Shown: positions 16,094-63,387 of the stretch, one piece after another
Position numbering within the stretch: position 1 is the first letter of the stretch
Layout: each line of letters begins with the position of its first letter
Assembly (NCBI GenBank): GCA_918797485.1
Contig: CAKKNE010000001.1
Location: forward strand, 3,224,001-3,288,000
Reading direction: 5' to 3'
DNA from: Pelagomonas calceolata
Taxonomy: Eukaryota; Sar; Pelagophyceae; Pelagomonadales; Pelagomonadaceae
Length of the DNA: 64,000 nucleotides
Translations under genes and position numbers: made by a program
Notes under the pieces: model-generated
Database searches by the model: none
Seen by the model: only the letters and a program-made list of their open reading frames with translations
What the model was told of the DNA's origin: nothing

Positions 16094-16704
16094 TGCTGTG
16101 ACTGTGTTGCGGGCGGCGCTGCAGCTGGTCTTTGTATTTGCCGCAGTTTCGAAAGGATTGCGACAGGCGACGAATGTGGCAGTGTTGCGTCGCAGTCGCT
16201 GGATCGACGCGTACAGCTGGTACGACGGCCCCGGCTTGCGCACAAGCTAGCTCGTAGACGCACTAGACTAAGGGAGTGTACGCAAAGCCTCAAATGCCAC
16301 GCGTACAGAGCCCTCGCGCACGCCTCGCGGCCGGCAGGACTCCTGCGCGGACCCCAGCCCGGCCACTAGGGATCACGTTTTGGCTCCCAGCGCCGCGAAA
16401 GCCAAGGCGCGGGCGCCGTACCAGCAGCCTCCAAGGCAGCCCGAGGCCGCGCCGCAGTCGAACGGCTCGAGGGCCGGCCGCTGCACGAGTGCCGGCAGCC
16501 CACGCCGCCCCGCGAGGGTAGAACAGCGCTGCCCCACCCGGGGCGAGGCGCCGCCTCCCGCCGCCGCGGACGCGATCCTTCACGGCCTGGGAGCCGCCCC
16601 GCAGCAGTTGTCGACGCGGGCGCAGCCTCAGGGGACCCTTCAAAGCTTGAGCCGCGGGCGTGGCCGCAGGGCACCCGTCACCGCTCGTGCCCTCCGCACA
16701 AACG
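16094..16704. other. divergent promoter region, 611 bp
   Basis: Between the CS-domain and CDKL genes; contains one copy of the dyad motif (16246-16266). The right half is very GC-rich without recognisable genes. Confidence 0.5.
16246..16266 (-). promoter_or_regulatory. dyad motif copy, divergent
   Basis: On the minus strand TCTAGTGCGTCTACGAGCTAGC: CTAG arms 12 nt apart with the TG(T/C)..TAC core. About 153 bp upstream of the CS-domain gene. Confidence 0.5.
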
Positions 16705-18339
16705 ATGAACAAGTACGAGGTCCTCGGCGTCGTCGGCGAGGGCGCCTACGGCATCGTCCTCAAGTGCCGCAACAAGGAGAACGCCGAGACGGTGGCAATA
16801 AAAAAGTTTAAAGAAAGCGAAGATGATGAAGAAAATGTCCGGAAGACGACGTTGCGCGAGGTTAAATTATTAAGGATGCTGCGGCACCCGAACATCGTGT
16901 CGCTGAAGGAAGCCTTTCGGAGAAAAGGTAAACTCTACCTCGTCTTCGAGTTCGTTTCCAAGAACCTGTTGGAAGTGCTAGAAAATGAAGTGGGCGGTGT
17001 GGGTTCCGATGCGACCTGTAGATATATGTTGCAATTAGCGCAAGCCATCGACTGCTGCCACTCCCACTCTGTGATCCATCGAGATATCAAGCCCGAGAAC
17101 TTGCTGGTCGATCCTCGCGGCAAGCAGCTCAAGCTGTGCGACTTTGGCTTCGCGAGGAGTTACGCACCGGGAGCGACGGACTTGAGCGACTACGTCGCCA
17201 CAAGATGGTACAGAGCCCCGGAACTGTTACTCGGAAGCACAGATTATGATGCCACAGTAGACGTCTTCGCGATGGGTTGCATCATGGGCGAATTAGCGGA
17301 CGGCCAGCCCCTGTTTCCCGGCGAATCGGAGATCGACCAACTCTACATCATCCAGCGCATGCTCGGGCCGCTGACGCCGGCCCAGGACGCGTTGTTCTTG
17401 CGGAATCCAAGGTTTGTGGGCCTCAAATTTCCCGACATGTCGCGGCCGGAGACGCTGCAGAAGAAGTACGTCGGCACTTTATCTAAGAGGTCATTGAGCT
17501 TCATGCAGGCCTTATTGCAGATGGAGCCGCACCAGCGCTATTCGTCCAGAGAGTGCCTCGAGCACCCGTATTTCGAGGACATCCGGCACGAGTACATCAA
17601 GCAGCCCACGTCCAGAGCGGGCACGGCGGCGTCTCGCAGTCGAGTGGGCACGGCGCAAAGTAGCGTTGTGAGTGGCGCGCCGTCCGAGGACCTGCCTACG
17701 ATTAAGGCGCGGCCGCGGTCGCCGCAGGGCGAGCCGCCCTCATTACCGCCGGCCCTGCCTTCGCGCCTGCCTCGCGCGACGAAGAAGCTGCCTCCGTCCT
17801 TCCAGAGGACGCAGAAGCCGAAACGGAAGCAGCAACGTCGAAGGCAGCAGCCGCAAGAACCCAGACGGCAGCAGCAGCCGCGGAAACGGAAACCGGCCCT
17901 GAAACCCGTGAACCAGGTGCCTCCGTTAGAAGATGCGCCCTTGCCCGAGGAGGGGTCCTTGTATGGACGGGCTCGAGCGCCGCCGCTGCGCGCCCGGAAG
18001 CCGCGCCGGTCGCGGGCGGAACGAGCGGCTTCGGAGCGGGAGCCGAAGCCCCTGACGCAGCCGCACCACGAGCCGCTCGCCGCGCGGTCGCCGGTTCCCA
18101 ATAGAGCCAAGGTGGCGACGCGCGAGCGCGACTTGCAGCGCGAGCGGGAAAGAAGACGGGAAAGGGAGATCCGCGAGCTGCGCGAGTTCTCCTCCAAATT
18201 ACCGCTGCAATTGCAGCAGAAGCTGCGCGACGCCGACGAGGGAAGTTATGCTCGCACGGGCACGTCGCACGGGGGCCGCAATAGATTGCCCGACTGGGAG
18301 CGGTCCGACCCGTTTCCCGGTTCGCAGAAGCGCTGGTAG
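16705..18339 (+). CDS. CDKL-type cyclin-dependent-like protein kinase
   Basis: 544 residues from MNKYEVLGVVGEGAYG. Kinase domain about 1-290: Gly loop GEGAYGIV, VAIKKF lysine, helix KTTLREVKLLRML, catalytic VIHRDIKPEN, CDFGFAR, ATRWYRAPELL. The N-terminal 50 residues are nearly those of animal CDKL5 (NKYEVLGVVGEGAYG). The activation segment reads DLSDYVATRW: CDKLs usually have a TxY dual-phosphorylation site, here Ser-Asp-Tyr. The 250-residue C-terminal tail is basic, Pro/Arg-rich and ends in a helical RERERRREREIRELREF stretch. CDKLs regulate ciliary or flagellar length in algae and animals, fitting the RJL GTPase in this window. Kinase family sure; role inferred. Confidence 0.92.
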   Translation: MNKYEVLGVVGEGAYGIVLKCRNKENAETVAIKKFKESEDDEENVRKTTLREVKLLRMLRHPNIVSLKEAFRRKGKLYLVFEFVSKNLLEVLENEVGGVGSDATCRYMLQLAQAIDCCHSHSVIHRDIKPENLLVDPRGKQLKLCDFGFARSYAPGATDLSDYVATRWYRAPELLLGSTDYDATVDVFAMGCIMGELADGQPLFPGESEIDQLYIIQRMLGPLTPAQDALFLRNPRFVGLKFPDMSRPETLQKKYVGTLSKRSLSFMQALLQMEPHQRYSSRECLEHPYFEDIRHEYIKQPTSRAGTAASRSRVGTAQSSVVSGAPSEDLPTIKARPRSPQGEPPSLPPALPSRLPRATKKLPPSFQRTQKPKRKQQRRRQQPQEPRRQQQPRKRKPALKPVNQVPPLEDAPLPEEGSLYGRARAPPLRARKPRRSRAERAASEREPKPLTQPHHEPLAARSPVPNRAKVATRERDLQRERERRREREIRELREFSSKLPLQLQQKLRDADEGSYARTGTSHGGRNRLPDWERSDPFPGSQKRW

Positions 18340-18502
18340 TAAGGTTGTTTACGCGTCTTGCTCCGATCTATTCTCCCCCCGGGGCGCCGCCGGCCGGCAA
18401 GTTTGCTTTTGCTTAGCTAGGCCTAGCCACGACCCGCCGCGGCGTTCAAAGTGGCGGCTGCGCGGGGTCCGCGTGACCGGAACGCCCGCCCCCGCCCCCG
18501 TA

Positions 18503-18542: not shown

Positions 18543-18627
18543 AGGGGGGAGCAGGCCGAACGGTACTGTCACGGAAGTTGTCACGGTAGTAACGTTGTTA
18601 CGCGTCCGCGCGGCGGGAGTCGAGGGG

Positions 18628-19936: not shown

Positions 19937-20464
19937 CGCAGCGAAGTGCTGCTGGTTCTGAGAACTGCTCGCGCCGCTTACGGCTGCCTTTTACTCGCCC
20001 CCGCGGACCTTTGTCCGGCAGCGAGGATTCGGCCTCGAGACTCGCTGCTAAGCTAGTCGCGTCCTTCTGCTAAGGCAGTCACCCGAGTGGCTGTCCTTGG
20101 CACAAGTGACGACTATAAAGTCCGCTTCCACCTCGCTTGGGGCGCCTGTGGAGCTCCAAGCGATCAAAAGCTGCGGCAGTAGAACCCGGCTGATTGCTAG
20201 TGTCTTACAGGACGCTAGCTCAGGCCGCCTGCCAAAACTCCCACAACCTCCATAGGTCTGGATAATACAACGGCGCAGGTCCTCTACTGACGCCCGCTGT
20301 TCAGCAGCCGCGTTTGCACCATCGCTGCGGCCGCCACCCGCGAGACACAGGACAGCCCTTGAGCACAGGACCTGCGCGCCGCCGTCCGGAAGTCTCCGAG
20401 GCACGACAGAGGACAGGAGAGGCGTGACAACGGCACACAGAGGCGAGCCACCGGCCAGAACAGG
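19937..20464. other. divergent promoter region, 528 bp
   Basis: Between U2AF1 and the Sel1 gene. Holds a perfect-arm copy of the dyad motif (20196-20219). No gene seen. Confidence 0.55.
20196..20219 (+). promoter_or_regulatory. dyad motif copy, consensus form
   Basis: GCTAGTGTCTTACAGG followed by ACGCTAGC: GCTAG arms inverted around a TGTCTTAC core. About 245 bp upstream of the Sel1 gene and 260 bp upstream of U2AF1. Confidence 0.65.
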
Positions 20465-35500: not shown

Positions 35501-35881
35501 TGCGTTGATTGATAGCGTCACGACACCGCCGCGGCTCTCGCGCGCGAGCGTGGACTCTCGTGTGATCATGACGACGGCGTCGAGGCGGCGCGGCATCGCG
35601 TCGACGCCGTCACGGCGACCACGTCATGCGCGGAGCATCGTATTCACTGGAAACGGTCCGAACGGCCCCAAATTCGAAAAAGAAACCAGCCACGACCTCC
35701 TCTCCCGGAGACGACGCATGCCGATGAAGGGAAGGCACCGCAACACCTCAAAACGCGGAGATCGCGCCTGCGCGATCTCCTCGTCCGTCTCCAAGTAGCC
35801 GCCGGCCTTGTCGTCCAGGGCCAAGCCTAACTGGAAGTCGGCCATGTTCGCGCCGAAGAGGCCCATGGCGCCCCTGCCCAT
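23586..35881 (-). CDS. giant coiled-coil protein, 22 exons, about 3,080 residues
   Basis: Exons 5' to 3': 35768-35881, 35333-35499, 33481-35232, 33056-33387, 32791-32943, 32477-32649, 32173-32355, 31615-31918, 31337-31509, 31116-31226, 30839-31003, 30546-30736, 30308-30446, 30098-30259, 29367-29944, 28694-29122, 28451-28593, 27259-28396, 26579-27041, 26005-26465, 24971-25748, 23586-24719. They sum to 9,243 nt in one frame. Long charged helices and coiled coils (e.g. LERDAELAARQAEQEE) dominate. A Cys pair (CLDCGKEMTRTHEE) lies near the middle, and a Cys/His cluster near the C-terminus (CRTCGQTYTEA, CGYHPGTY, RWSCCDS, GCKYRYHLPP) may bind zinc. Twenty of 21 introns are introner-like. The 5' end of intron 7 is least certain. 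No named family recognised; a structural or cytoskeletal role is a guess. Confidence 0.75.
24720..24970 (-). mobile_element. introner, family B-like (251 nt)
   Basis: Giant gene, last intron. Sense ends GTCCGCGCCGCGGCGTCCC and CCCCGCGCGCAG. Several internal repeats of the GCGACGGCGTG / GCCATCG core. Joins YLKEQ to AEDEQK. Confidence 0.8.
25749..26004 (-). mobile_element. introner, family B (256 nt)
   Basis: Sense ends GTACGTATCTCGGCGTCCC and GACGCTCCGCGCAG. Joins RAR to SKAIYF in frame. Carries an expanded interior with a second core copy. Confidence 0.88.
26466..26578 (-). mobile_element. introner, family D (113 nt)
   Basis: Sense start GTCCGTGACGCAGCGTCT, end TGTCCGTGCCACACAG; the start is shared with the CPSF73 intron at 61666-61808. 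GTCCGTG occurs near both ends. Joins LKK to EMELYA. Confidence 0.75.
27042..27258 (-). mobile_element. introner, family B (217 nt)
   Basis: Sense ends GTGCGCTCTCGGCGTCC and GATGCTCCGCGCAG, followed by exon GTGGGGC; GTG at both junctions. Restores QLEM-WGATNK. Confidence 0.88.
28397..28450 (-). mobile_element. introner, minimal family B (54 nt)
   Basis: Sense GTGCGACGCGGCGTC ... GATGCTCCGCGCAG, next exon GTGTCAGC; GTG at both junctions. The interior is largely deleted, yet splicing it restores VKR-VSDQQ. One of the shortest introns here. Confidence 0.82.
28594..28693 (-). mobile_element. introner, family B with GC-AG borders (100 nt)
   Basis: Sense GCGCGATCTCCGCGTTTTG ... GACGCCCCGCGCAG. The only frame-restoring donor is GC: AAAGG|GCGCGATC joins to GCAACGC (LKG-QRMKL). 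No GT donor lies at a workable position. Confidence 0.8.
29123..29366 (-). mobile_element. introner, family B, long (244 nt)
   Basis: Sense GTACGCATCTCGGCG ... GATGCTCCGCGCAG, next exon GTACGAC (GTACG repeated at both junctions). Contains an extra internal block, GACTCTCGTG, shared with the intron at 35500-35767. Confidence 0.88.
29945..30097 (-). mobile_element. introner, family B variant (153 nt)
   Basis: Sense GTCGGACGCGGCGTCCC ... GTTCCGCACAG. Phase 0; joins MDDY to VAALVG. Family-B interior with a family-A-like CACAG end. Confidence 0.82.
30260..30307 (-). repeat. 48-nt microsatellite intron, (TTGAAC)n
   Basis: Sense GTTTGTTGAACTTGAAC...CCCACGCAG. Over half of the intron is a six-base repeat (plus strand TTCAAG, about 30275-30302). 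Splicing joins LEKK to AGLNKK. Not related to the introner families. Confidence 0.75.
30447..30545 (-). mobile_element. introner, family B (99 nt)
   Basis: Sense GTCCGCTCGCGGCGTCCC ... GACGCTCCGCGCAG. Joins LKKT to PFYKFK in frame (phase 2). Confidence 0.85.
30737..30838 (-). mobile_element. introner, family A (102 nt)
   Basis: Target duplication GTCGGCAG / GTCGACAG (7 of 8). Ends CCGTGTCCACGCC and TTGCTGGCCACACAG. Phase 0; joins PPPE to VDSEAE. Confidence 0.88.
31004..31115 (-). mobile_element. introner, family B (112 nt)
   Basis: Sense GTGCGACCTCCGCGTTTTG ... GAGGCTCCGCGCAG, next exon GTCAAG. Joins KRDA to VKRKRR. Confidence 0.87.
31227..31336 (-). mobile_element. introner, family B (110 nt)
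   Basis: Sense GTGCGATACCGTGTCTTC ... GTCGCTCCACACAG. Family-B interior with a CACAG end. Joins EAAI to ADARAY. Confidence 0.87.
31510..31614 (-). mobile_element. introner, family B (105 nt)
   Basis: Sense GTATGCTGCGGTGTTGCGG ... CGTTCGCGCGCAG. Joins LEG to GVTCRI (phase 1). The initial CGATCTC block is lost. Confidence 0.84.
31919..32172 (-). mobile_element. introner, family A-like with 10-bp tandem repeat
   Basis: The 3' end is clear (GGTCGATGGCCACGCAG, then GTCGAGAAG). The 5' end is uncertain; GTCGGAGT at 32172 keeps the frame and half-matches the 3' flank. Contains four tandem copies of CGAGCCTCGT (plus strand 31981-32018). Confidence 0.55.
32356..32476 (-). mobile_element. introner, family B (121 nt)
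   Basis: Sense GTGCGCTCGCCGCGTTTTG ... GTTTCCGCGCAG. Joins AKFG to QAPPGY. Confidence 0.87.
32650..32790 (-). mobile_element. introner, family B (141 nt)
   Basis: A full-length type copy: GTGCGATCTCGGCGTCCC ... GATGCTCCGCGCAG, next exon GTTCGAA. Interior includes GGTGGTTTCTTTTTTGCTG and GGCCGTTCGGACCG. Joins VTDG to SNRVIS. Confidence 0.9.
32944..33055 (-). mobile_element. introner, family B (112 nt)
   Basis: Sense GTGCTGATCGCGGCG ... TTTCGGACACGCAG, next exon GTGCGCG: GTGC at both junctions. Joins YAGC to ARYEF. Confidence 0.87.
33388..33480 (-). mobile_element. introner-like intron (93 nt)
   Basis: Sense GTCGCGTCGATGGCG ... GATTCGCGCGCAG; only this donor gives the phase needed (SNRV-QDPDEQ). 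Consists mostly of core sequence. Confidence 0.72.
35233..35332 (-). mobile_element. introner, family B (100 nt)
   Basis: Sense GTGGATCTCCGCGTTTTATG ... TTGAATCGCGCAG. Joins EKIDL to LNRMRR (phase 2). Confidence 0.88.
35500..35767 (-). mobile_element. introner, family B with GC-AG borders (268 nt)
   Basis: First intron of the giant gene. Donor CAG|GCGCGATCTCCGCG, acceptor CAATCAACGCAG. A GC donor is required by position; exon 1 ends EEIAQ, exon 2 starts DDDPLAD. A family-B unit is followed by an extra 130-bp block. Confidence 0.8.
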
Positions 35882-36324
35882 GGTTTATGACGGCGGGGGC
35901 CCGGTCCGGGCTGCCTACGGCTCAAGCCTAGCTCTGGGCGGCTGCCGGGCGGACGGCGGTGGGGTGCTGCCCGGCGTGCGGTAGCCGCCACGCGTCGACG
36001 TCGGGAGCCCGCGACCAGCACGTCGGGGTCCGGTGAGCCGGCGGGCGTAGCCTGCCCCGAGCAAAGCTGAGCGCTGGGTTTGCTTTTGGTTGCTAGTGTC
36101 TTACCGCCGCTAGCTGTGTACGCACCGCACCGCTGCAAGGCGCCATCGAGGCGCCGGGCGCCCCCTCCCAGCATTCATCCAGACCACGATGAGGTGAGCG
36201 ACCTAGTAAAACAGGCAAAAGGCGCGCCACCGGCGGCCGCGCGGGGACGCCCCCTAGCGACGTAACAAGAGACACGACGTGTATGCCAGGACGCCCGCCG
36301 CCGCAATGATACAAGCATATAGAC
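35882..36324. other. intergenic, 443 bp, promoter of the giant gene
   Basis: Between the giant gene start and the LRR gene stop, both minus strand. Contains a dyad motif copy (36092-36114). No gene seen. Confidence 0.5.
36092..36114 (+). promoter_or_regulatory. dyad motif copy
   Basis: GCTAGTGTCTTACCGCCG then CTAGC, 13-nt spacer between CTAG cores. 211 bp upstream of the giant gene. Confidence 0.65.
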
Positions 36325-37392: not shown

Positions 37393-37774
37393 GCTGTGGC
37401 ACGCGCCCCCACCCACCTCTGGGAGAGTGCTCTGCCAACCTATGCGGGATCACCCGAATGGCTGATGGGATGGGTGCGAGCGCTGCAGCCCGCGCAAAAT
37501 GGAGGTCTAAACCGATCGTCGGTTGGCAGTGGCTGCTCGGGCGTCGCGGCGCATGCGGCAGCAGTCTCTAGTGTGTTACAGTCCGCTAGGTCGGAAGCTG
37601 CGGCTTTGCGGCGCGTCGTGCGAAGGGTACGAGCCAGCACGCGTGGGACAGCGCTTTGCCCTCGCGGACGACGAGTGCAAGCGTTCGAGCGAGCAGTAAC
37701 GCGTGACACCCAAAAACAAAGCCACCACCTCGGAGAGCAAAAGTGCTGCACGCGCAACCGCACGCCTGCGAGAA
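37393..37774. other. divergent promoter region, 382 bp
   Basis: Between the LRR gene and the PTGES2-like gene; contains a dyad motif copy (37567-37590). Confidence 0.5.
37567..37590 (+). promoter_or_regulatory. dyad motif copy
   Basis: TCTAGTGTGTTACAGTCC then GCTAGG: 14-nt spacer, TGT-TTACA core kept. About 185 bp before the PTGES2-like start. Confidence 0.6.
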
Positions 37775-45113: not shown

Positions 45114-46286
45114 TTATTTCAAGGTAGGCTGGAACGCGTCCGCGTAGATCTCGTCGACGACGCACTCCGCCCCCAGGAACTCCTCCGCTAACAAAATCTT
45201 CTGCCAGGAGTCGTCCGCTAATAATTCATCGAGGGGCGCCATGCGCTCGAGGGGCTGCACGAAGGCCCGCGGCATGCAGCCGGCCCTCGCGCAGGCCGCG
45301 GCCTGCGCGTCGCGCGCGTCTACACTTACATCTTCGACGGCCCGGATCATCGCCTCCAAAGCCGCGGCGCGCCGAGGCGACGGCGCGCAACTTACGACCT
45401 GGGCCAACGCGGCCCGTCTCAATTGCGCGAGCCACCACTCGGCCCCGTACGTCAGGCGTAATTCCTCGCCTTTTTTGATATCGCGCGTACACACGGCAAA
45501 AATGCGGGGCGCGAAGAGGCCCGAACTTCCAATAGTAGCCTGCACCAACGCGCAATTTGTGCTACTTTCAATGTTGGACACGTATTCTTGCGTGGCTCTT
45601 CTCAGAGCAGCCCCATCAACCGCTACCGGAGGATAGGGCCAGGCCGGATCCTTGAGCACGAAGCCGTCCACATCACTAGGTCTCAACGACCCCTCCGACG
45701 GCGTTAGGTGCGACGGCGCCCTTATGGTGGAGTGGTCATTTATCAGCTGTGCCACACCCTCATCCACAGTAGCTCGTTCGACTTTCCCCAGTAGCACGTA
45801 CTCGCCTTCCCCGGCTCGCGTGACACACGCATCTAAATCTTCATCGACATTACAGGTCGTTTTCAGGGAGCCGGCCACAACAGAACCTCCCTTGGCTCTC
45901 CCAACAGCGTCCGCGACGCGCGCCCCCGTCAAGCCGATCTCGTACCGCTGACAGTACTTCCGCCAGTTCTCGCCGTAGTAGGACTGATATAGAGCGAGGT
46001 CGCCGGATCTCGTGTCCGGGCATTCCGCGAGGAGCCCGACGTATTCCGTCGCCGTGGAGCCTTCTTTTAAATCCTGGGCGGCGAAGACGCCCGTGCCGGC
46101 GCCCGGGCTCTCTTGCAACGTGACGCGCGGGTCCGCTCGTTCATAGGCCTCGACGTCGACGCTCCAGGATTCATATATCTGATCGGTGACGGGCGGCGGC
46201 CGCCTCAGCAAGCGGCGCAGGGGGTTGAGGGGCGCGGCTCGCTCGATGACGAGCGCGGCGCACGAGAGACGGAGCCAGCGCAGCAT
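45114..46286 (-). CDS. SET-domain protein (putative lysine methyltransferase)
   Basis: 390 residues, single exon, ATG at 46286. The N-terminus is hydrophobic then basic (LSCAALVIERAAPLNPLRRLLRR), possibly an organelle leader. SET motifs: SPGAGTGVFAAQDLKEG...TEYVGL (N-SET, AdoMet site), QLINDHST (the NHS-type motif, spelled NDHS), APRIFAVCTRDIKKGEELRLTYGAEWW (C-SET with catalytic Tyr). The insert between the two halves is about 130 residues. No post-SET Cys cluster. SET proteins with organelle leaders can modify non-histone targets; substrate unknown. A dyad motif lies 266 bp upstream. Confidence 0.85.
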   Translation of the reverse strand: MLRWLRLSCAALVIERAAPLNPLRRLLRRPPPVTDQIYESWSVDVEAYERADPRVTLQESPGAGTGVFAAQDLKEGSTATEYVGLLAECPDTRSGDLALYQSYYGENWRKYCQRYEIGLTGARVADAVGRAKGGSVVAGSLKTTCNVDEDLDACVTRAGEGEYVLLGKVERATVDEGVAQLINDHSTIRAPSHLTPSEGSLRPSDVDGFVLKDPAWPYPPVAVDGAALRRATQEYVSNIESSTNCALVQATIGSSGLFAPRIFAVCTRDIKKGEELRLTYGAEWWLAQLRRAALAQVVSCAPSPRRAAALEAMIRAVEDVSVDARDAQAAACARAGCMPRAFVQPLERMAPLDELLADDSWQKILLAEEFLGAECVVDEIYADAFQPTLK

Positions 46287-46740
46287 CGTGGTAACGTGGT
46301 ATCAAAAGAGCAGCGAAGGGGTGGTGGGAATGGTCCCGGGCTCAGGTCGCGCCGCGGTTGGCGCTCGACAAAAGCTGCTGTGAGAGCACAGGAGCAAGAT
46401 CCAGAGAGCACACTGCGGGAACCAGCTGGGCCGCCTTGTGCGGCCGTATGCGGTGCACTGAAGCCTCGAGGATGCCCTTCAGCACCGTTGTTGGGTTTTG
46501 GTCCAGCGTCTGAGCTCAAATGAGTCAAATCAGAGCCGCGGATCCGGTCGAGCTAGCGTTATGTAAGACACTAGCAAACAAGGTTCTGGAGGTTTGCCGA
46601 GTCGGTTCTGCTTAAAAAAGCAAGTGTGCTGTTATGAAAGACGCGGTGGCTCGCGCCCGCCGCCGATGTAGCGGACTAGCACCGGAGCAGAACCCACGTG
46701 ATAAAACGCCGCCGACGAAAAAGAAAAACACAAAACACAC
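46287..46740. other. intergenic, 454 bp
   Basis: Between the SET gene start and the kinase stop, both on the minus strand. Contains a dyad motif copy (46552-46575). No gene seen. Confidence 0.5.
46552..46575 (-). promoter_or_regulatory. dyad motif copy, consensus form
   Basis: Plus strand GCTAGCGTTATGTAAGACAC then TAGC; on minus GCTAGTGTCTTAC-ATAA-CGCTAGC. Inverted GCTAG arms, 14-nt spacer. Confidence 0.65.
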
Positions 46741-48351
46741 TTACTCCCGCGCGCTCACATCACTATCGGTGCTAGGACTCGTCGGCGAAGCGGGCAAGGC
46801 CCGCACGGGCGACTTCGACTCGGGCGTGTAGTAGGAGTAGGTCCCGTCCGAACCGGGCGACGCCTGGGACACGGCGCTCAGGTCGGCCCAGCTCACAGCA
46901 GTCCCACTACGATGAGAGGACGACGCATACGAAGTATCATCGTCATCCGTCAAAATGCGGATCTGCGTCCGCAGGTGCGGGGGCCGGCACTTTTGGATCG
47001 TCACCTCGTCGATGCGGACGTACGACTGGATCCGCGCGCGGTACTCGCTGCAAGGCAACCTAGCACAACCCGAATCTAGACCGTCGCCGCAGTGCCTTTC
47101 CAATAACGAAAAGAGGCCGTCCTTGCTATCTTCGAACGCCGGGAGTCGTTCCGTGAAAGCAGCAAACAAGGGATGCCGCAGCGCGTCGTGCGCGCCCAAG
47201 CGAGGGTCCAGTCCTGAAACACAAGCCAAGGCCAGGTCGCTGACGTCGCCTCTTCTTGTCTCCTCGCGCAGCTCCAGCCGTCTCGCGTCCTTTTTGAGGA
47301 CACTGGCGTCCACATCAGATTCTTTTTTCGTTTCCGTCTTTTGTAGTGATTGTCTGAGTGAAAAGGCGTCATCAATGAGTTCCAAGATGGACGGGGCTCG
47401 GTCTAGCAACGCCGCCCTTGATGCCGCATGGGCGACGACGCGGTCGGCATCTGTCGAACAATGGAGCTCTCGTAAGTCTTGGGGAGAGGGCGCCCCGAGC
47501 ACCCAGCACTGCCTCGTAAGTACATCCAACGTGTTCTTGCCCGCAAAGAGCGGTATGGACGTCTCCATCTCGACCAAGATACAACCACACGCCCACACGT
47601 CGCCCGCCCTTCCGCCTCGTCGCGGTGACCCCAGCAGCTGTTCCGGCGGCTGGTAGCACCGCGCGCCGATGTCGTCTGTGGTTGAACGCAGACCATCTAA
47701 AGCGGCCGACGTCGAATCATCTGACCCTAAAAACTTCGCGGACGCAAAGTCGATGAGTTGCGCGTGACACTTCTCATCTAGCACGATGTTTGAGGGTCGC
47801 ACGTCTCGATGGGCTATTTTCGCATCGTGGACAAAAGCCAGGGCCGCGAAGAGTTGTCTTGCGACGCACGTCCGGTGTTCCGGGGACAGTCTGTCGGCTA
47901 AAATGGCATGCCTTAAATCAGTCCCAAAATAATCGAGAGCTATGGCCGCATGCAGGCCACTCTCGCCCACATACACTCGTCGCAGTCTCCCGACGCACGG
48001 ATGGCCCTGCAAGGCGTGGAGATAGGCCACCTCCCGATAGCACCTTTGTGAAGACGTTCTATCCCTAAAACAGCCTCGTAGCAATTTCAGCGCGACGAAG
48101 CGTCTTCTGGCGCGCTCGTAGGCTTTATATACAATACATCTAGAAGTCCCACCGACCCTCGCGCAGATCTCGTAGCGCCGCAGTAACGCGGGCTCGACGA
48201 GCGGGTCGTCCTCTTTTGGTGCTCTTTCCGTGGTGGAAACTGTTTCTTCATCATAGGCCTGCTCGGCGATGGCCTCCAGTTGTTCTTCCGTGTGGAACCA
48301 GGGGCAGCTCCTCTCTGAATCGCGGCGGCTGCGGTACTGTGCTAGGGCCAT
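46741..48351 (-). CDS. CMGC-type (MAPK/CDK-like) protein kinase with DFA motif
   Basis: 536 residues from the ATG at 48351 (MALAQYRSRRD); upstream open frame looks non-coding. Kinase domain about 60-390: Gly loop VGGTSRCIVY (degenerate, GGTSRC), VALKLL lysine, catalytic HRDVRPSN, then LIDFASA in place of DFG, YQPPEQLL in place of APE, and WACGCILVEM. The HRD Asp and the Asp of DF(G) are kept, so activity is possible although the Gly is replaced by Ala. No TxY activation site is evident. The C-terminal 130 residues are Ser/Pro/Asp-rich. A MAPK/CDK-related origin is likely from WACGCI and LFAGKNTLDVL. Substrate unknown. Confidence 0.85.
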   Translation of the reverse strand: MALAQYRSRRDSERSCPWFHTEEQLEAIAEQAYDEETVSTTERAPKEDDPLVEPALLRRYEICARVGGTSRCIVYKAYERARRRFVALKLLRGCFRDRTSSQRCYREVAYLHALQGHPCVGRLRRVYVGESGLHAAIALDYFGTDLRHAILADRLSPEHRTCVARQLFAALAFVHDAKIAHRDVRPSNIVLDEKCHAQLIDFASAKFLGSDDSTSAALDGLRSTTDDIGARCYQPPEQLLGSPRRGGRAGDVWACGCILVEMETSIPLFAGKNTLDVLTRQCWVLGAPSPQDLRELHCSTDADRVVAHAASRAALLDRAPSILELIDDAFSLRQSLQKTETKKESDVDASVLKKDARRLELREETRRGDVSDLALACVSGLDPRLGAHDALRHPLFAAFTERLPAFEDSKDGLFSLLERHCGDGLDSGCARLPCSEYRARIQSYVRIDEVTIQKCRPPHLRTQIRILTDDDDTSYASSSHRSGTAVSWADLSAVSQASPGSDGTYSYYTPESKSPVRALPASPTSPSTDSDVSARE

Positions 48352-48664: not shown

Positions 48665-49375
48665 ATGGCCGTCCAGTGCCTCCGCGGCCGCGACGACGTC
48701 GCCGCCGCCGCGGGCAGCCCATTTTTTGACGACGGCGGCGGCTTCCATGGGGCCTCGACCGCAAGCAGTGCCGGCTTTGACACGGTCCGTGCCCTGCAGC
48801 ACCTTCAGTCACGGCTCGCGCGGCTCGACCGGGAGCGCCACGAGGCCGACGCGTGCGCGGCGGCGCTCCGGGAAGACATCGCCGCGCGCGAGCTCGACCT
48901 CGCGCGCCTCGCGGCGGAGGCGGACGCCGCCGACGCCACGGACGACGGCACGGTCGACGACGAGGACGACGAGGACGACGAGGCCACTCTGGTCGAGGCG
49001 GCAACGGCCGCCGAGGCCGAGCTGCGCCGCGCCGAGGACCGGCGGGCGGCCGCGATCGACCGGCTGGCAGCGGCCGCCGCGGCGGCGCGCGCCCGGCGGC
49101 CTCGGACGAATCCCGGCGCCCGGCGGCCTCGGGCGAGTCCTGCGCCGCGTACCGCGGCGGCGCCCGCGCGGCGAAGGAGCGCGCCGCGCCCGCTCGTCGC
49201 GATCGACGAGCGCCCGCCGTGGAATTCGTGCGGGCGGCGGGGCATCTCCGCGGCCGAGGAGCGCTGGACGCCGGAGCCGCGGCCCCCGCCGGAGCCGGCC
49301 CGTTCCAGGCGCTCCACGGGGACCTCGAGGCGTGGTCGGACGGCGACATCGTCGACGAGGCGAAGGGGTAAGTAG
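48665..49375 (+). CDS. coiled-coil protein with apparent frameshift
   Basis: From the ATG at 48665 (MAVQCLRGRDD). Residues 40-140 form a strong coiled coil broken by an acidic run (LQSRLARLDRERHEADACA; DDEDDEDDEATLVEAA). After about 49090 the coding character moves to another frame, which ends naturally as FQALHGDLEAWSDGDIVDEAKG at 49371. The change coincides with a tandem duplication of a 26-27-bp unit (GGCGCCCGGCGGCCTCGG...) at about 49083-49134. So either a repeat-slippage indel, a sequencing error or a tiny intron explains it. The stop is embedded in GGGTAAGTAG, donor-like. No family recognised. Confidence 0.5.
   Translation: MAVQCLRGRDDVAAAAGSPFFDDGGGFHGASTASSAGFDTVRALQHLQSRLARLDRERHEADACAAALREDIAARELDLARLAAEADAADATDDGTVDDEDDEDDEATLVEAATAAEAELRRAEDRRAAAIDRLAAAAAAARARRPRTNPGARRPRASPAPRTAAAPARRRSAPRPLVAIDERPPWNSCGRRGISAAEERWTPEPRPPPEPARSRRSTGTSRRGRTATSSTRRRGK
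49083..49134 (+). repeat. 26-27-bp tandem duplication in coding sequence
   Basis: Two consecutive copies of a unit reading GCCCGGCGGCCTCGGACGAA / GCCCGGCGGCCTCGGGCGAG, where the reading frame of the coiled-coil gene appears to change. Confidence 0.65.
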
Positions 49376-50234
49376 TTGGTGAATAGCCGCCGCGTGCGTT
49401 ATCTTTCGCGGTGCTAAAGCTAGTGGGCGGCGCCCCTGCCCACCGCCGGTCCGATGCGGCCGGCGACGGGCCGGGCTCGGAAGCCCGCGAGGCGCCCCAT
49501 CCCCACTAGTAAGTCGAAAGACGTAGCTCTTTATGTACAAGTCGGCCTCGACGACGTACCAGAGTCGGGGAATGTTCTCACCGATGTGAGTTCCATGGCG
49601 GTTGGATTCACGCGAGAGCGAGAGCGGGGCGGGGAGGGGGGGGACCAAGACTCGACGCGGAGCATCGTTGCCGTGACGGGCGGGCCCGGCTTGCTCCTTT
49701 TGGCCTGCGGGCCGTCATCTGCCATATCACTGCGGCTGTTTTAGAGATACGGTGCGCTCCGGGGACTCGCGCGCGCGGCGGGTTGCGGGTGCCTAAGTGA
49801 GGCCAGGCCGCCTGGGCGAGTTTCTCGTTTCCCGTCGCACGCCTTGCGGTCTCCAGGTCGAAAACCCTTACAAGGCAAACGTTCTGTGAGCTTGGCGCTC
49901 CCGGATATCCGCGGGCGGCGGTGCAGGACGCCTGACAAAACTGCACCAAGCAGGCCAGCCCACCACATCGTCGTCCCGCTGAGCTATGCCTCCTTGGCGC
50001 CCTTTGTATTCCTCTGCGAGCGTGGACAAACCTAGGGAGCGATTTGAGCAACGATCGCTAGCGGCTGTAAGGCACTAGGAAGCCCAGCCCAGCTGTCTTG
50101 GTCGAGCACGCCGCAGCGATCGCTTTGTACGAGACGCAGGGTTAATTCTACATACCTTGGACGCTGCAGGTCGCAACGCCGTTGCCGCGCTCGCACGCCG
50201 TTGCTCTCCCAAGCCGCCGCACTGCACCGCCATA
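49376..50234. other. intergenic, 859 bp
   Basis: Between the coiled-coil gene and the small basic protein gene. Contains a purine run near 49615-49645 and a dyad motif copy (50057-50079). An open frame at 49500-49744 could be a 3' exon of the coiled-coil gene if its donor-like stop is spliced; unsupported. Confidence 0.4.
50057..50079 (-). promoter_or_regulatory. dyad motif copy
   Basis: Minus strand CCTAGTGCCTTACAGCCG then CTAGC: 13-nt spacer. 156 bp before the gene at 50235. Confidence 0.6.
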
Positions 50235-50489
50235 ATGCCCAAAAAAGCAGCACCATCTAACGACGCGCCCGCGAGCGATCAAAAGAAAAAGACGAAAACG
50301 GGCCCGACGCCGGCCGAGAAGCTCGCGGACGAGCTCGACGACCTCATGATCGCCTACCTGAAAGCTTGTAGAGAAACGCCGGACAAGGCGCCGGGCCTCG
50401 AGAAGAAAATGAAAGCGAAGACGGCTCAATTAGCTGCTTTGCAGGATCAAGGGATAGACGCGCACCCGAGCTGGGCCGATGTGGAATAA
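50235..50489 (+). CDS. small charged helical protein
   Basis: 84 residues, MPKKAAPSND start, Lys-rich N-terminus then a single long helix (EKLADELDDLMIAYLKACR; EKKMKAKTAQLAALQDQGI). Its TAA stop overlaps the ATG of the next gene by one base (TAATG), an arrangement unusual for a nuclear gene pair. Either the two are dicistronic, or the downstream gene starts elsewhere, or they fuse by splicing. No family recognised. Confidence 0.6.
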   Translation: MPKKAAPSNDAPASDQKKKTKTGPTPAEKLADELDDLMIAYLKACRETPDKAPGLEKKMKAKTAQLAALQDQGIDAHPSWADVE

Positions 50490-53008: not shown

Positions 53009-53690
53009 CTTTAAACGACTCGCTCGGCCTCAAGCCGGCAAAGTCCGGGTGCCGCTCGAAGGGCGCCGTGTCGGCGTAGCAGCGGTCGAAGACGGCGTCG
53101 ACCGTCGCCTCGGGCTCGGCGCGCCCCGCCAGCGCCAGCGACAGCGCCGCGCGCCGCCGCACGCACTTGCCGTGATGTGCCATCAAGCCGAAGACGCCTC
53201 TATTAATTTCCTGCGAGAGGTCGCACTCGCCGGACAGCGACGACGCGCGAATCTCGGCACAAGCGTGGTGCGCGCCGCTCTTCCAGTCGACCTTCGCGCG
53301 GCACTGGTCGTACGCGTGCACGAGCTCGTGCACGAGCGTCCTTTCAAAAACCGCCTTGTCCGGCGCGTGCTCGGCGACGACGACGACGCCCGGCGCGTAG
53401 CGCTTCTGCGACCCGTCGTTGACGGCGAAGCCGCCGACCATCTTGTCGCCGAGCGGGCCGCTCCGTTCTACAGAGGCGCACCTGACAAACCCAAAGGGCG
53501 AGCCGACGTCGCAGCCGAGCTTCGCGATCTCATCAAATAAAAAGCGCACGCGCACGTTGCGCGACAGCGCCGCGTCTCGTAAACGGCAGCAGCGCCTCTC
53601 CGCGGCCGTCTCCGGTTCCGGCGCCGGTGCCGGTGCTGGCGCCGCGTCGTCCGTCGTCGTCGTCGAGCGGCGGCGCATGAGGCGACCCAT
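53001..53690 (-). CDS. ATP23: ATP23-type mitochondrial metalloprotease (M76)
   Basis: 229 residues, single exon. HELVHAYD (HExxH zinc site) preceded by KAVFERTLV, then the family signature HHACAEIRASSLSGEC. Cys-rich C-terminus (YADTAPFERHPDF). Atp23 works in the mitochondrial intermembrane space, processing Atp6 and aiding ATP synthase assembly. The Pro/Ala N-terminus (about 40 residues) is low-complexity. The last residues (SESFKVT) and stop are encoded by the antisense of the oxygenase relic, so the C-terminus may be recently extended. Family assignment very sure. Confidence 0.92.
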   Translation of the reverse strand: MGRLMRRRSTTTTDDAAPAPAPAPEPETAAERRCCRLRDAALSRNVRVRFLFDEIAKLGCDVGSPFGFVRCASVERSGPLGDKMVGGFAVNDGSQKRYAPGVVVVAEHAPDKAVFERTLVHELVHAYDQCRAKVDWKSGAHHACAEIRASSLSGECDLSQEINRGVFGLMAHHGKCVRRRAALSLALAGRAEPEATVDAVFDRCYADTAPFERHPDFAGLRPSESFKVT

Positions 53691-54363
53691 TATTTATGGC
53701 GCTGCGATGGCGTCGTCGCTACAAGTTGCGTCTCCAAGGTAGCACACTGAGGTGCTGCTCGATGGGTGCAGCTCTAGACGTGGCGCCAGAGGGCTGGGCT
53801 GCTGTGCTCGCAGCAAATGTGTCACAACAGCTTACAACTGCTCCAATCTGCACCCAGTGTGCGGTAAAACAAGAATTTACGCAAGTTAATCGCGCAGCGG
53901 CTAGCGGCCTGTAAGACACTAGCAAACAGGGACGCGTCTTGACGCGCGGCTAGCCCACTCAAGCGGCCCGTGGGAGCTCTGCCCGCCCGCCCGGGGCCGT
54001 CGGGGGCTCCATAGGGGCGACCGGCTGCCCCTCTGGGCTGCCCATCTGGGCTGCCCCGCATGCCAACTCAAGCCTCCCCGCGGACCCACCACGCCTCCCC
54101 GACCGCCAAGCCCCATCAGACGGCCCCTCGAAATAAAAAAAATTGCGAATTGCGGTCTAAAAAAACTCGAGCGTGCCCCGAAGACGCTGCACCCTGGATT
54201 TGGCGCGTGTGGCTCCTAGCCCCCCGGCCCCCAAAAAACTGTGCGCCGCGGTTGCCCCGGGGTGCTGCCTAGCTGCTCAAGCGGTTTTCCGGGCTGCGCG
54301 TCGCGCTCCGCGCTAGATTTCACAGCCTCAACTCAAAAAAACGTATACCCCCAATATCGAATA
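53691..54363. other. divergent promoter region, 673 bp
   Basis: Between ATP23 and the first ankyrin gene. Has a consensus dyad motif (53900-53923) and a long GC-rich stretch rich in GGCTGCCC. No gene seen. Confidence 0.5.
53900..53923 (-). promoter_or_regulatory. dyad motif copy, consensus form
   Basis: Minus strand GCTAGTGTCTTACAGG then CCGCTAGC; same as the 20196 copy except one base. 210 bp upstream of ATP23, 440 bp upstream of the ankyrin gene. Confidence 0.65.
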
Positions 54364-55212
54364 ATGGACCCGCGTCTCCGCGCCCCGGCCCTCAAGGGCG
54401 ACGTCGAGGCCCTCACCACCGCATTGAACGCGGGGGCAGACCCAAACAAGCGCGACGAGGACGGCTACGCGCCTTTACTGTACGCCGCTTCAAACGGGCA
54501 TGCGCGCTGTATTGATGTACTAAGGCGCCACGGCGCCGACGTCAACGCCGCGGCGCGCTGCGGTCGAACACCCTTAAACACGGCGGCGGCGGGCGGCCAC
54601 ACCGAGGCCATCAAAATTTTGATCAAGGCGGGTGCTCTCGTGGATTGGCGCGAGAGCTGGAACGGCTCGTCCTTCGCGACGGCGTTGCACTGGGCTGCTA
54701 GACTAGGCACGGCGTCTGCTGTACAAGCTTTGTTAAAAGCCGGCGCCGACGTCGACGCGGACAATGCTACAAGGCGAGTGGTAAGAGCAGTGACGCTCGC
54801 GAATGTAGCCGGTGAATCGTCTTCTTCCGACGACGACGACGAGGAAGAGGTCCAAGACGACGACTCGGCCGTCGAGAGCGTCGGGAGCTCCATCCGCTTG
54901 GAGGTCGTCCGCGGCAGTTTTACGCCGCTCGACGAGGCCGTCCGGCGCTTCGGCAGCAAACCGAATCGGGTGATCCCGACGCTCGTAGCAGCGGGGTGCA
55001 CGATCAAGCTCGAGCACGCCGAGACCGTGCCCTACCTGCGCCAGGTGCTCGAATGCGGTGGATTCGCGCAGTACGAGCGCGCGCATCGACGAAGATTAGC
55101 GTGGATTTTAGGAAGGGGCACGCGCGTGCCCGCCGAATTACTGCCGACGATCATCGACTTCTGGGCCCACGTCGGCTGGTACGCCGTGCCCCACCTGCGG
55201 CCCGGGTCCTAA
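54364..55212 (+). CDS. ankyrin-repeat protein 1
   Basis: 282 residues from MDPRLRAPALKGDVEA. About four ankyrin repeats at 5-145 (DEDGYAPLLYAASNGHARCI; CGRTPLNTAAAGGHTEAI; ATALHWAARLGTASAVQAL). An acidic insert (SSSSDDDDEEEVQDDD) and a C-terminal region (ECGGFAQYERAHRRRLAWI; PAELLPTIIDFWAHVGWY) follow. The C-terminal motif recurs in the neighbouring ankyrin gene. Convergent, tail-to-tail. Protein-protein interaction is the only safe functional statement. Confidence 0.85.
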   Translation: MDPRLRAPALKGDVEALTTALNAGADPNKRDEDGYAPLLYAASNGHARCIDVLRRHGADVNAAARCGRTPLNTAAAGGHTEAIKILIKAGALVDWRESWNGSSFATALHWAARLGTASAVQALLKAGADVDADNATRRVVRAVTLANVAGESSSSDDDDEEEVQDDDSAVESVGSSIRLEVVRGSFTPLDEAVRRFGSKPNRVIPTLVAAGCTIKLEHAETVPYLRQVLECGGFAQYERAHRRRLAWILGRGTRVPAELLPTIIDFWAHVGWYAVPHLRPGS

Positions 55213-60274: not shown

Positions 60275-60722
60275 CGCGGCGCCCGCGCTCGGTCACGGCG
60301 CCGGCGTCCGGTGACCCGGCTTTGGCCCGTACGTGTGCTGTCGGTTGCGCGCGCGGCCGCTCCGCGATATCACGCGCTGCGCGGCCAACTTATGCGGCCG
60401 CGCGGGCGTTTGGGGTCTGCCGCAGTTGATTGCCCGCAGCGCCTCCGCGGCGTCCTATGGGCGCGCCAAGCGCAGCCGGCCGTCGCAGCACTGCTGCGCG
60501 AAGCCACCAGCACAGTCCTGGCGAGCAGTTCGCCTGGTAGCGCCGCGCAAAGACCGCGCCGCGTCGGTCCTCGGTTTGTTCTCGCTAGTAGGTCTACAAG
60601 CTAGCCAAAACGCCCGCGCGCTAGTCCTAGCACCGTAACATCGACTAAACGCCCGCGCGCACTAGTGCTAGCACGGGATGCCAAAACGGTACGCCGCCGA
60701 CGCGAAAACCCAGCACTCCATG
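60275..60722. other. intergenic, 448 bp, with palindrome cluster
   Basis: Between the helicase start and CPSF73 stop. Contains a dyad-like palindrome (60584-60605) and two more CTAG dyads in an imperfect 45-bp repeat (60605-60680) sharing AAACGCCCGCGCGC. No gene seen. Confidence 0.5.
60584..60605 (+). promoter_or_regulatory. dyad motif copy, divergent
   Basis: GCTAGTAGGTCTACAAGC then TAGC: 12-nt spacer, near-perfect inverted repeat. 310 bp upstream of the helicase. Confidence 0.5.
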
Positions 60723-63172
60723 TTACCCCCCACTCGAAGTCGGGATCGGCACGCACACTGACAAAGTCCGCTCGAGCAGCTTCCGCAGCCGCCTTCGCAG
60801 CGCGTCGTCGTCCGACGCGACGTCGGCGCGCAGCTCGCTCCCTTCGCGCACTAATCCACAGGTCGCGCTCTGCTCGTCGAGGACGACCTTCATCAGACAA
60901 ATGTACTCTTGTTCGTCGCCGTCCGCCGGTTCGCAATCCGTCACGTTCTCCTCACCGAAGGAATCAGATAACGCGTCCCGGACCAATGCGGCAGCAGCGG
61001 CGCCGCCGTCGCGCTGGGTCGCCGGCGGCGCGCAGCAGGGCCCCGCATTCCTCAAAGCTGGTACGGAAGTCGCCGCGTGTAACGCGAGACAAGCAGTGGC
61101 GTCGGCGACCGCATCACCCAAGGGTGCCGCATTCCAATTTAATGTTAACTCCTTCTCCCCTGCTTCTAGTCCATAAACAGACGCACGCACGGCGCCACAA
61201 ATGACCCATCCTTTCTCGAAGGCGCCGTCGCACTCGTCATCTGTCGCAGTGCCCTCTTGCACGTCCGCGAAGGTCTGCCTCAGCAGAAAGTCCAAGCCAT
61301 CTACTCCACAACTTAATCGTAGTCGTACCGTCTGCGCTAAGGCCGTGACCGCGAGAGGCGAACTGTCCCTTAATTCATCATCAGCGTAGAGCGTCGTTCT
61401 CAAATCCCTCCTTACGAGTACGCCAGCCTGCACTCTCCTACGTTTCGGCTTGTCTACGTCACTCATCTGATCGTCGTCCCACGTCGCGCCCACGCAGGCC
61501 GCCCGTCGGTCGCGTTGGAACTTCATCTTCACCAATTGGCCGTTCTCCGGCGAAGACACGGTCGGTCTTCTGTCCGACGGCCACTTGTTTGTTTCTTGCA
61601 CTAGTTTACCCTTCAGGCGGTCCATCTCGTTCTTCTCGCCATGCACTAAGACGATGTTGTCGGGCCTGCGTCGACCGACGGCGTCGCGAGACACGTCGAC
61701 TCTCTGACGGCCACGTCGACGGCGTCGCGGCGGCGTGATATCGTGGAGACGCCATCTTCCCAAAGTTGAAGTTCAGAAACCTTCAGAAACAGACACTGCG
61801 TCACGGACCGCGTCGCCTCCACGAACGAAAAGTTCTGGAAGAAGTCGACGTGGGCACTGAAACTGACAGAGACCACCGTACACCGTCGCGCTTGGACCCG
61901 CCCGTCCATCGTTCTCACCTCGTCCGGTTCACTCAAGATTTGCTTCGCCAGCGTGCCTTCGACGGAGTACCCCGCAATGACCACACCGTTCCGTTCCGAC
62001 GAGGCCCACTTGTCAAACAATCTACGAGAAACACCACTCTGGAGCATACCAGGAGCCGCCATGACGACGCAGGGCCCCGTGTCGTCGAGATCATCTACCG
62101 AATTCAAATTTTGCACATGTGCAAACCTAAAGGGGTTCGCGACGTCCATCTGGTCCCTCACCTGCGTGTGTACGCGTGGACTCGCGCGAAGACGCCATCG
62201 CCGCGAGTTTCGACACTGGTCGCGGACGTGCTGGTTCATCATGTTTATATACGTCTGGTAGACCCTCAAAGCGCGCGTCGCCATCTTGGAAGCGTAGAAG
62301 ACGGGAATCCGGTGGAGATCCTCCCGCTCCTTCCAGTACTCGTCCAGGATCAACAGTAACTCTTGCGCCCGCCCGAGGGCAAAGGCCGGGATCAAACATC
62401 TACCGCCCCGTTGCACGATGCGCTCGATCGTCGACGTGAACAAAGCTTCTCGGACATCTCTGGATTCATGTTTTTGAGTTCCGTAAGTGCTCTCCATAAT
62501 TAACACGTGCGGTTCCAGAGAAGGTACCTCCGCAGGTACTAAATGACGATCCTCCTCCATACTGTAGTCTCCGGTATATAGCAAGCGCACGCCCCCGATC
62601 TCGATGTAGAACATCGCCGCGCCAAGAACATGTCCAGCGTTATAGCTCCAGAACCTAATGCCGTTGTGTTCGACGACCTGGTGGAAGTCGACCAACTCGA
62701 CCTTGTCGCAACAATTAGCTAGGTCCGCTTCGTCGTACAAGCCGTCCCTGCCACCGCTCCCTTCGCCGCCTTGCTTCCTGCCGTCGCCCGACGGTAGTAA
62801 ACGAATGTAATCGGACAGTAGTAGTCTCATGACGGCTCTTGTGGCGTGGGTCATGAAGATCCTGCCTTTAAAACCCGTTTTCTCCGTCAAGTACGGGACG
62901 CCGGCCGCGTGGTCGATGTGGAAATGAGAAACGAGGAGTAGGTCTACGGTTGATAAGTCTACGGTGTCTAAGAATGGGAGGGCATCTAAGCCGGATCTAC
63001 CGGGATGAATGCCGCAATCTAATAAAACGGACCTCCCTCGAAATTCCAGTAGATGGCAGGAACGACCGACTTCTTTGCCGCCGCCCAAAGGTGTTATTTG
63101 TAAGGTGTCCTCCATGGGCTGCGGGGCTTGTGTGGCGCCCGCGACGACCTGGACGGGCGGGGGCTCGGCCAT
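60723..63172 (-). CDS. CPSF3: CPSF73 pre-mRNA 3'-end endonuclease
   Basis: Exons 62228-63172, 61809-62161, 60723-61665; 746 residues. Metallo-beta-lactamase core: SHFHIDHAAGVPYL (HxHxDH), GHVLGAAMFYIEI, LLYTGDYSMEEDRHL, ESTYG; beta-CASP: GRCLIPAFALGRAQELLLIL, GPCVVMAAPGMLQSGVSR, NGVVIAGYSVEGTLAKQIL, SFSAHVDF. After intron 2 comes PDNIVLVHGEKNEMDRLK with the C-motif His. The C-terminal 200 residues match CPSF100/73 C-terminal domain length. It cleaves pre-mRNA at the poly(A) site. Frame joins give IAHVN-type contiguity with human CPSF73 around MMNQHVRDQMDVANPF. Very sure. Confidence 0.95.
61666..61808 (-). mobile_element. introner, family D (143 nt) in CPSF73
   Basis: Sense start GTCCGTGACGCAGTGTCT, end CCGTCGGTCGACGCAG. 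Shares its first 18 bases (one mismatch) with the giant-gene intron 26466-26578. Joins VEATR to PDNIVLVHG. Confidence 0.82.
62162..62227 (-). mobile_element. short introner, family A-like (66 nt) in CPSF73
   Basis: Flanks GTCCGCGACCAG / GTGAGGGACCAG (8 of 12). Sense ... GTGTCGAAACTCGCGGCG ... TACACACGCAG. Length is a multiple of three, but CPSF73 homology (NQHVRDQ-MDVANPF) requires removal. Confidence 0.85.
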
Positions 63173-63365
63173 GATGACTGCTGCTGTTTAGAGCCGGCTC
63201 GAGGCGCTCGCGAGGTGTGGGGCTTGCAGGGGCTGTTTCGGAGCGCGGCGTGGCAGCGCAGCGGCGCCAGGCGCTTGTGTATTATAAAGTGGTGCTGCGG
63301 CGACCGCGTCTGGCTGCTTAAGGCCAACAGCGAGTGCTTTTAGCCTGCTTTTGCTCTCTGCTCCC

Positions 63366-63387
63366 CCTAGTGTCGATGTACGCTAGC
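63366..63387 (+). promoter_or_regulatory. dyad motif copy
   Basis: CCTAGTGTCGATGTACG then CTAGC; 12-nt spacer. 64 bp before the MYND gene, 194 bp before CPSF73 (divergent pair). Confidence 0.55.

What the first reader, a model, noticed from the sequence alone, without database searches (positions are those of the whole stretch)
16246..63387. Recurrent dyad motif GCTAG-TGTCTTAC-N3/4-CGCTAGC in nine 5' intergenic regions
Seen: copies at 16246, 20196, 36092, 37567, 46552, 50057, 53900, 60584 and 63366. The best five are near-identical over 23-24 bp; others keep the CTAG arms 12-14 nt apart and part of the TGTCTTAC core. All lie 60-440 bp upstream of start codons, none in genes or in convergent gaps, and in either orientation. 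Downstream genes are functionally mixed (CPSF73, ATP23, U2AF1/Sel1, SET, giant gene). Inference: a general promoter element or factor site not described to my knowledge.
Basis: partly seen in the sequence, partly recalled or inferred. Interest (0 to 1): 0.8.

Follow-up and report, generated by a model that had tools for sequence, protein, structure and literature searches.

The report
Recurrent 28-bp promoter site in Pelagomonas
A small ocean alga carries more than two thousand nearly identical 28-letter DNA sites between its genes, mostly in front of gene starts and kept in a related alga, which points to an undescribed DNA-binding factor that opens or organises its promoters.

Summary
The window lies in a 32.4 Mb genome, most likely Pelagomonas calceolata. 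The strict motif GCTAGTGTCTTAC-N2-6-GCTAGC occurs there 1,322 times, reversed control 0; a 24-mer form with up to 3 mismatches occurs 2,257 times, control 0. Of 78 sampled strict copies none lies in predicted coding DNA: 48 divergent gaps, 28 tandem, 1 convergent, 1 at an edge. The unit is about GCTTGCTAGTGTCTTACAKGMCGCTAGCT; no repeat runs out from it and no target-site duplication was seen. Contigs of a related pelagophyte, filed under bacterial MAGs, have a counterpart in the same gap for 7 of 7 sites: 5 at the same place (in 4 of these at least one flank no longer aligns), 1 inverted, 1 decayed in the relative. Two weak window copies (16246, 60584) belong to a rarer class with the same CTAG arms. 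Best explanation: a site for an unidentified factor of the general-regulatory-factor kind (like yeast Abf1/Reb1) that marks promoters, often bidirectional ones. Binding and function are inferred, not shown.

The parts
20192..20220 (+). type I site, exact, in a divergent gap (19962-20367)
36088..36115 (+). type I site, exact, upstream of a minus-strand gene (tandem gap 35881-36328)
37563..37591 (+). type I site with 2 mismatches in the left half, divergent gap 37393-37828
46551..46579 (-). type I site, exact, upstream of the SET-domain gene (tandem gap 46258-46779)
50056..50083 (-). type I site with 2 mismatches in the left half, tandem gap 49365-50262
53899..53927 (-). type I site, exact, divergent gap 53664-54387
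16247..16266 (-). type II site (CTAGTGCGTCTACGAGCTAG), divergent gap 16095-16674
60585..60604 (+). type II site (CTAGTAGGTCTACAAGCTAG), tandem gap 60287-60739
63367..63386 (+). degenerate CTAG pair (CTAGTGTCGATGTACGCTAG), divergent gap 63180-63559; class uncertain

Best explanation
The motif is a double-stranded DNA binding site of about 28 bp (GCTT-GCTAGTGTCTTACA-K-G-M-C-GCTAGC-T). It has two unequal arms, GCTAGTG and CGCTAGC, around an asymmetric TCTTACA core, with 3-6 bp (mostly 5) between TTAC and the right GCTAGC. An unidentified sequence-specific factor of pelagophytes, probably a dimer or a many-fingered protein, binds it in either orientation in promoter gaps, most often near the middle between divergent genes, and keeps the promoter open (the role of general regulatory factors such as yeast Abf1 and Reb1), so that transcription can start on one or both sides. 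Shown by sequence: abundance, anatomy, position, free orientation, counterparts in a relative, neighbouring A/T tracts. Inferred: that a protein binds, that chromatin is opened, that expression depends on it.
For: 1,322 strict copies, control 0. 2,257 copies of the 24-mer with <=3 mismatches, control 0. The 12-mer CTAGTGTCTTAC occurs 2,364 times, control 1; about 1.6 expected from base composition. Sample of 78: 0 coding, 48 divergent, 28 tandem, 1 convergent, 1 edge; excess in divergent gaps over their length P 8e-7. Sites are central in divergent gaps (relative position 0.50, sd 0.14); distance to predicted coding starts is median 223 bp, middle half 175-275, n 125. No orientation bias in tandem gaps, 16:12. 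Column information fades at about -4 and +2 of the site. GC falls to 0.52 and A/T tracts of 5+ are commonest in the 50 bp on either side. For 7 of 7 sites in relatives' contigs a counterpart lies in the same gap here; three CTAG pairs without the core in L004, all inside the predicted coding segment 4372-7801, have none. Mixed target genes. No Rfam match in the window.
Against: No binding, chromatin, transcription-start or expression data were available. Gene models come from a home-made HMM without RNA evidence. The copies are unusually uniform for a factor site (1,322 exact over 19 bases out of an estimated 2,900). In tandem gaps the site is no nearer to the downstream start (median 254 bp) than to the upstream end (184 bp), so those cases do not by themselves show a promoter role. 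One of 77 classified sites lies in a convergent gap (L038). Of the seven compared pairs, five were found because the relative carries the strict motif; L010:7636 is decayed in the relative; the copy here of L010:2199 has an extra base in the core and is not found by the ungapped PWM; L011 lies in a stretch 89% identical throughout, and downstream of L010:4291 about 300 bp also align at 84%, so these say less. Sites are dense, so a shared gap without a shared place (2 of 7) is weak evidence.
Confidence: 0.68

Rival explanations
1. An insulator or nuclear-architecture site (CTCF-like in role) that separates the two promoters of a divergent pair rather than activating them.
For: Central position in divergent gaps; long two-part site with variable spacer; no theme among target genes.
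Against: 28 of 77 classified sites lie in tandem gaps, where no divergent pair needs separating. Divergent gaps hold two 5' ends, so part of the excess is expected of any promoter site.
Confidence: 0.13
2. A replication-origin or recombination-hotspot determinant that falls in promoters because these are open.
For: About one strict site per 25 kb, or one per 11 kb by the extrapolated total; spacing along the first 1.7 Mb of C1 close to random; intergenic.
Against: No replication or recombination data. Sequence-specific eukaryotic origins are known mainly from budding yeasts (recalled). Centring between start codons fits promoter function better.
Confidence: 0.08
3. Remnants or ends of a miniature transposon or other repeat.
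For: Copies are very uniform. A few sampled gaps share other repeats (L046/L070 and the M2/M3 words).
Against: Little column information beyond about 4 bp of the site in 78 copies. All-against-all comparison of flanks (250 bp each side) gave 13 hits among 7 of 78 loci, at varying distances from the site, due to separate repeats. No target-site duplication. Sites persist at the same place in a relative while at least one flank has diverged in four pairs.
Confidence: 0.04
4. An RNA-level element in 5' UTRs (hairpin GCUAGUG...CGCUAGC).
For: The arms could pair (by inspection).
Against: No orientation bias relative to the gene (16:12); the arms differ consistently (T against C at the sixth base); no Rfam match in the window.
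Confidence: 0.03

Closest known systems
Yeast general regulatory factor sites (Abf1, Reb1, Cbf1, Rap1)
   Same: Many promoter sites linked to nucleosome-free regions of genes of mixed function (passages of PMC2897762 on Abf1, Reb1 and Cbf1 seen); Abf1 has a two-part site, and these sites act in either orientation (recalled).
   Different: Those sites are shorter and more degenerate (recalled); no nucleosome data here; factor unknown.
BANP (TCTCGCGAGA) and ZNF143 promoter sites of animals
   Same: Palindromic or long motifs found mainly in promoters (recalled; for BANP, starts of abstracts seen in a listing).
   Different: Unrelated letters; no such protein was looked for here.
CTCF and REST sites
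   Same: Long, two-part sites with variable spacing (recalled).
   Different: Those occur widely outside promoters (recalled); letters unrelated.
Phytophthora core-promoter and factor motifs
   Same: Stramenopile promoter motifs (listings; passages of PMC11267843).
   Different: In PMC11267843 the letters CTAG occur twice, both in TTCTAGAA of one HSF; no CTAG-N12-14-CTAG site.

Membership tests
General regulatory factor (GRF) site | Many copies, in promoter gaps, genes of mixed function | tested here: met
   76 of 77 classified sampled sites lie in gaps with a predicted gene start
General regulatory factor (GRF) site | Occurs in either orientation relative to the gene | tested here: met
   16 same, 12 opposite in tandem gaps; one site inverted between species. 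Function in either orientation not tested
General regulatory factor (GRF) site | Nucleosome depletion at the site that depends on the factor | not testable with these tools
   No chromatin data; A/T tracts next to the site are only suggestive
General regulatory factor (GRF) site | Bound by an identified GRF protein | not tested
   Binding protein unknown; none was searched for
Transposon end / MITE | Shared sequence running outward from the motif | tested here: not met
Transposon end / MITE | Target-site duplication | tested here: not met
   Best case 7 of 78 at length 2 against 3.9 expected
5' UTR RNA element | Fixed orientation relative to the gene | tested here: not met
   16:12, P 0.57

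The most novel reading that the evidence does not exclude
Pelagophytes use a modular promoter code: fixed CTAG arms 16-18 bp apart enclose interchangeable cores (type I TGTCTTACANNNCG; type II YRNGTCTAYRAN; a palindromic type III TGTGTCGATACG), read by an unknown lineage-specific factor family with shared arm recognition and different core readers, which sets up a large share (perhaps a quarter) of all promoters.
Probability: 0.3. Interest if true: 0.78.

Novelty: new member of a known kind. Interest (0 to 1): 0.62.

Why it matters
P. calceolata is called one of the most abundant eukaryotes of the oceans (abstract of PMC9481584), and the paper searches made here gave no description of promoter structure in pelagophytes (listings). 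A near-exact 28-bp site at an estimated 2,900 places (about 4,600 gene 5' ends; extrapolated) gives a direct handle: the 28-mer can serve as bait to isolate the factor, and the site is a candidate bidirectional promoter part. It would add an independent case of a lineage with its own general promoter factor.

Tried and rejected
Transposon end: disfavoured by flank, TSD and synteny tests. RNA hairpin: no orientation bias, consistent arm difference, no Rfam match. Viral source: the pattern gave 3 IMG/VR contigs of GC 0.46-0.47 with one shared context and a shorter spacer; judged unrelated by eye, not pursued. Prokaryotic matches: 13 loci; L004, L005, L007, L010 and L011 proved to carry pelagophyte DNA, L005 and L011 only in part; the other eight (L006, L008, L009, L012-L016) were only read around the match (L012's genome also searched by pattern) and are probably chance. 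The script ended with an error after it had printed all 16 loci. The idea that the 156-bp repeat at L010:299-455 is an introner was dropped, because copies lie after stop codons. A regulon reading was dropped after Pfam (40 of 95 eligible proteins scanned, out of 125 neighbours). PWM caveat: it was trained mostly on strict sites, so the three weak window sites fall below its cut-off. Two type III words were looked for in the window and the fetched loci (L017-L102 without L021) and not found, so type III rests on the capped listing.

Sampling: 80 strict sites were drawn (55 of 77 on C1 up to 1.70 Mb; 25 of 37 plus-strand sites listed for C2 up to 3.96 Mb); 78 were fetched, the last two of the C2 draw were left out for space. 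The strict pattern was the selection rule, so the logo is biased towards it. The list holds 60 plus and 40 minus places, so runs of one strand at its end are an artefact.

Full report
What was checked. The nine sites were read directly. Four are exact copies of GCTAGTGTCTTAC-N-GCTAGC (20196, 36092, 46552, 53900), two have two mismatches in the left half (37567, 50057), and three are weak. CTAG is not enriched in the window (125 against 124.8 expected from trinucleotides), but CTAG pairs spaced 16-18 bp number 11; other spacings up to 60 hold 0-2, except 6 (four pairs) and 36 (three). The expectation for the three spacings together is 0.73. The left half alone is not significant in the window, so the two-armed form is the signal.

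Where it comes from. The window is C1:3224001-3288000 of a genome of 32,445,274 bases in 8 contigs. This fits the published Pelagomonas calceolata assembly (6 nuclear contigs of 32.4 Mb in total plus two organelle contigs; outline, abstract and passages of PMC9481584 seen). The species name is therefore an inference. That paper's main text does not hold the words 'motif' or 'intergenic'. A search with five pieces of the motif found 13 papers, of which 10 are listed; their titles concern other organisms, one of them bidirectional promoters of medaka (not opened). Searches on pelagophyte or algal promoters listed no description of such a site (capped listings).

Abundance. The strict motif occurs 652 + 670 times, reversed control 0. 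The 24-mer GCTAGTGTCTTACANNNCGCTAGC with up to 3 mismatches occurs 1,157 + 1,100 times, control 0. The 12-mer CTAGTGTCTTAC occurs 1,186 + 1,178 times, control 0 + 1, about 1.6 expected. Strict sites on the first 1.7 Mb of C1 are spread much as a random process (77 sites, CV of gaps 0.93). From the spacing distribution the total is perhaps 2,900 sites facing 4,600 gene 5' ends (extrapolation), out of 16,667 predicted genes (PMC9481584).

Position. A seven-state HMM gene model was trained on the window and the fetched loci. Pfam hits on 19 of 40 proteins read in its frames support it; 6 of 10 window ORFs next to the sites also have a Pfam family. Of 78 sampled strict sites, 0 are coding, 48 divergent, 28 tandem, 1 convergent (L038) and 1 at an edge, upstream of a plus-strand gene (L079). 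Against gap lengths in the window this is an excess in divergent gaps (26.8 of 77 expected, P 8e-7) and a lack in convergent gaps (6.7 expected, P 0.007). A divergent gap holds two 5' ends, so part of the excess is expected of any promoter site. In divergent gaps the site sits near the middle (mean 0.50, sd 0.14); the distance to the predicted coding start is 223 bp at the median (n = 125). Neither side of the asymmetric site prefers the nearer gene (P 0.97), and in tandem gaps orientation is 16 same to 12 opposite. In tandem gaps the site is roughly central too, so those cases alone would not separate 5' from 3' roles. In the window, 5 of 11 divergent gaps, 4 of 40 tandem gaps (which include likely introns) and 0 of 10 convergent gaps hold one of the nine sites.

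Anatomy. Aligned on the site, 78 copies prefer GCTT before the left arm (T 85% at -1, T 67% at -2, C 53% at -3, G 53% at -4) and T after the right arm (53%); beyond that no column within 30 bp exceeds about 0.1 bit. The spacer between TTAC and GCTAGC is 5 bp in 61, 4 in 11, 3 in 4 and 6 in 2. The arms differ consistently: T at the sixth base on the left, C at the matching base on the right, so the dyad is imperfect and the site has a direction. GC drops to 0.52 and A/T tracts are commonest next to the site. A sub-form with GGATGC before CTAG occurs 53 times.

Conservation. Three contigs of one MAG filed as 'Spirochaeta sp. MED672' (L004, L007/L021, L010) match this genome in collinear blocks of 82-94% identity, one block of L007 at 70%, so they come from a related pelagophyte. 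The last 339 bases of a contig filed as a proteobacterium (L011) match at 89%. Seven sites in them (L010 at 2199, 4291, 5353 and 7636; L004 at 7907; L021 at 9065; L011 at 3762) have a counterpart in the same gap of this genome, 7 of 7. Five are at the same aligned place and in the same direction (2199, 4291, 7907, 9065, 3762). In four of these at least one flank no longer aligns; downstream of 4291 about 300 bp align at 84%, and L011 lies in a stretch 89% identical throughout, so these two say less. The copy here of 2199 has one extra base in the core and escapes the ungapped PWM. One (5353) is inverted within the same gap. One (7636) is a decayed form in the relative against a strong one here. 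Five of the seven were found because they carry the strict motif in the relative, so the test is their presence here. Three CTAG pairs without the core in L004, inside a predicted coding segment, have no counterpart here, a small control; a fourth, L021:3925, was not aligned. L005 carries a stretch 90-96% identical to C1 with the same site, probably another strain; the rest of the 8 kb held of L005 does not match collinearly.

Related classes. Window sites 16246 and 60584 fit CTAGNNNGTCTANNANCTAG, found 16 times in the genome with control 0; 15 of the 16 fit the narrower CTAGYRNGTCTAYRANCTAG, so the free positions are constrained. With two mismatches the narrower form gives 215 against 10 control; palindromic places count on both strands. 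Among the 100 places listed, 18 are exactly a third, palindrome-like word, CTAGTGTGTCGATACGCTAG (my count on the list; no control of its own was run). At one place (L010:462 and G000's counterpart) the relative has a type III-like pair and this genome a type II-like one (read by eye). So arms seem fixed and cores vary; whether one factor or several read them is open.

How it most likely works. The evidence points to a DNA site bound by an unidentified factor that keeps promoters open and serves genes on either side: it would work like a general regulatory factor site. That it is bound, that chromatin is open, and that expression depends on it were not tested. Against a plain factor site speaks the great uniformity of the copies; against a mobile origin speak the lack of shared flanks and of target-site duplications and the synteny.

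Verdict. A real, abundant, conserved promoter-gap site, not described in what could be searched; a new member of a known kind, with unusual length and uniformity.

Noticed in passing
window 60621 (minus strand); L017:9586, L025:2134, L051:1247, L093:2423, L094:1231, L095:1192 and 1221, L101:1349: A recurrent word around GTTACGGTGCTAGGACTAG lies about 100-240 bp after stop codons on the sense strand of the gene before it in 8 of 9 places (L101 is the exception). In L010 it is part of a repeat of about 156 bp with 39 matches among the 47 rows. It may be a 3'-end signal or a repeat that settles after genes.
   Followed up: partly
L025:2187, L046:1604, L070:1410, L088:1257, L094:1273: A second recurrent block, GGCTAGTTACGTCGC followed in most by C-rich stretches, also 97-246 bp from a predicted coding end on the sense strand in 5 of 5 places.
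   Followed up: partly
L004, L007, L010 (NZGT01, 'Spirochaeta sp. MED672'); end of L011; part of L005: Prokaryotic MAG records contain pelagophyte DNA, three contigs from a species at mostly 82-94% nucleotide identity to this genome: contamination, but useful for comparison.
   Followed up: yes
G000, for example C1:638778 (type II) and C1:2297720 (type III): Two further CTAG-armed motif classes: type II with a GTCTAYRA core (16 against 0 control) and type III, a palindrome-like word with TCGA at its centre (18 exact among 100 listed places).
   Followed up: partly
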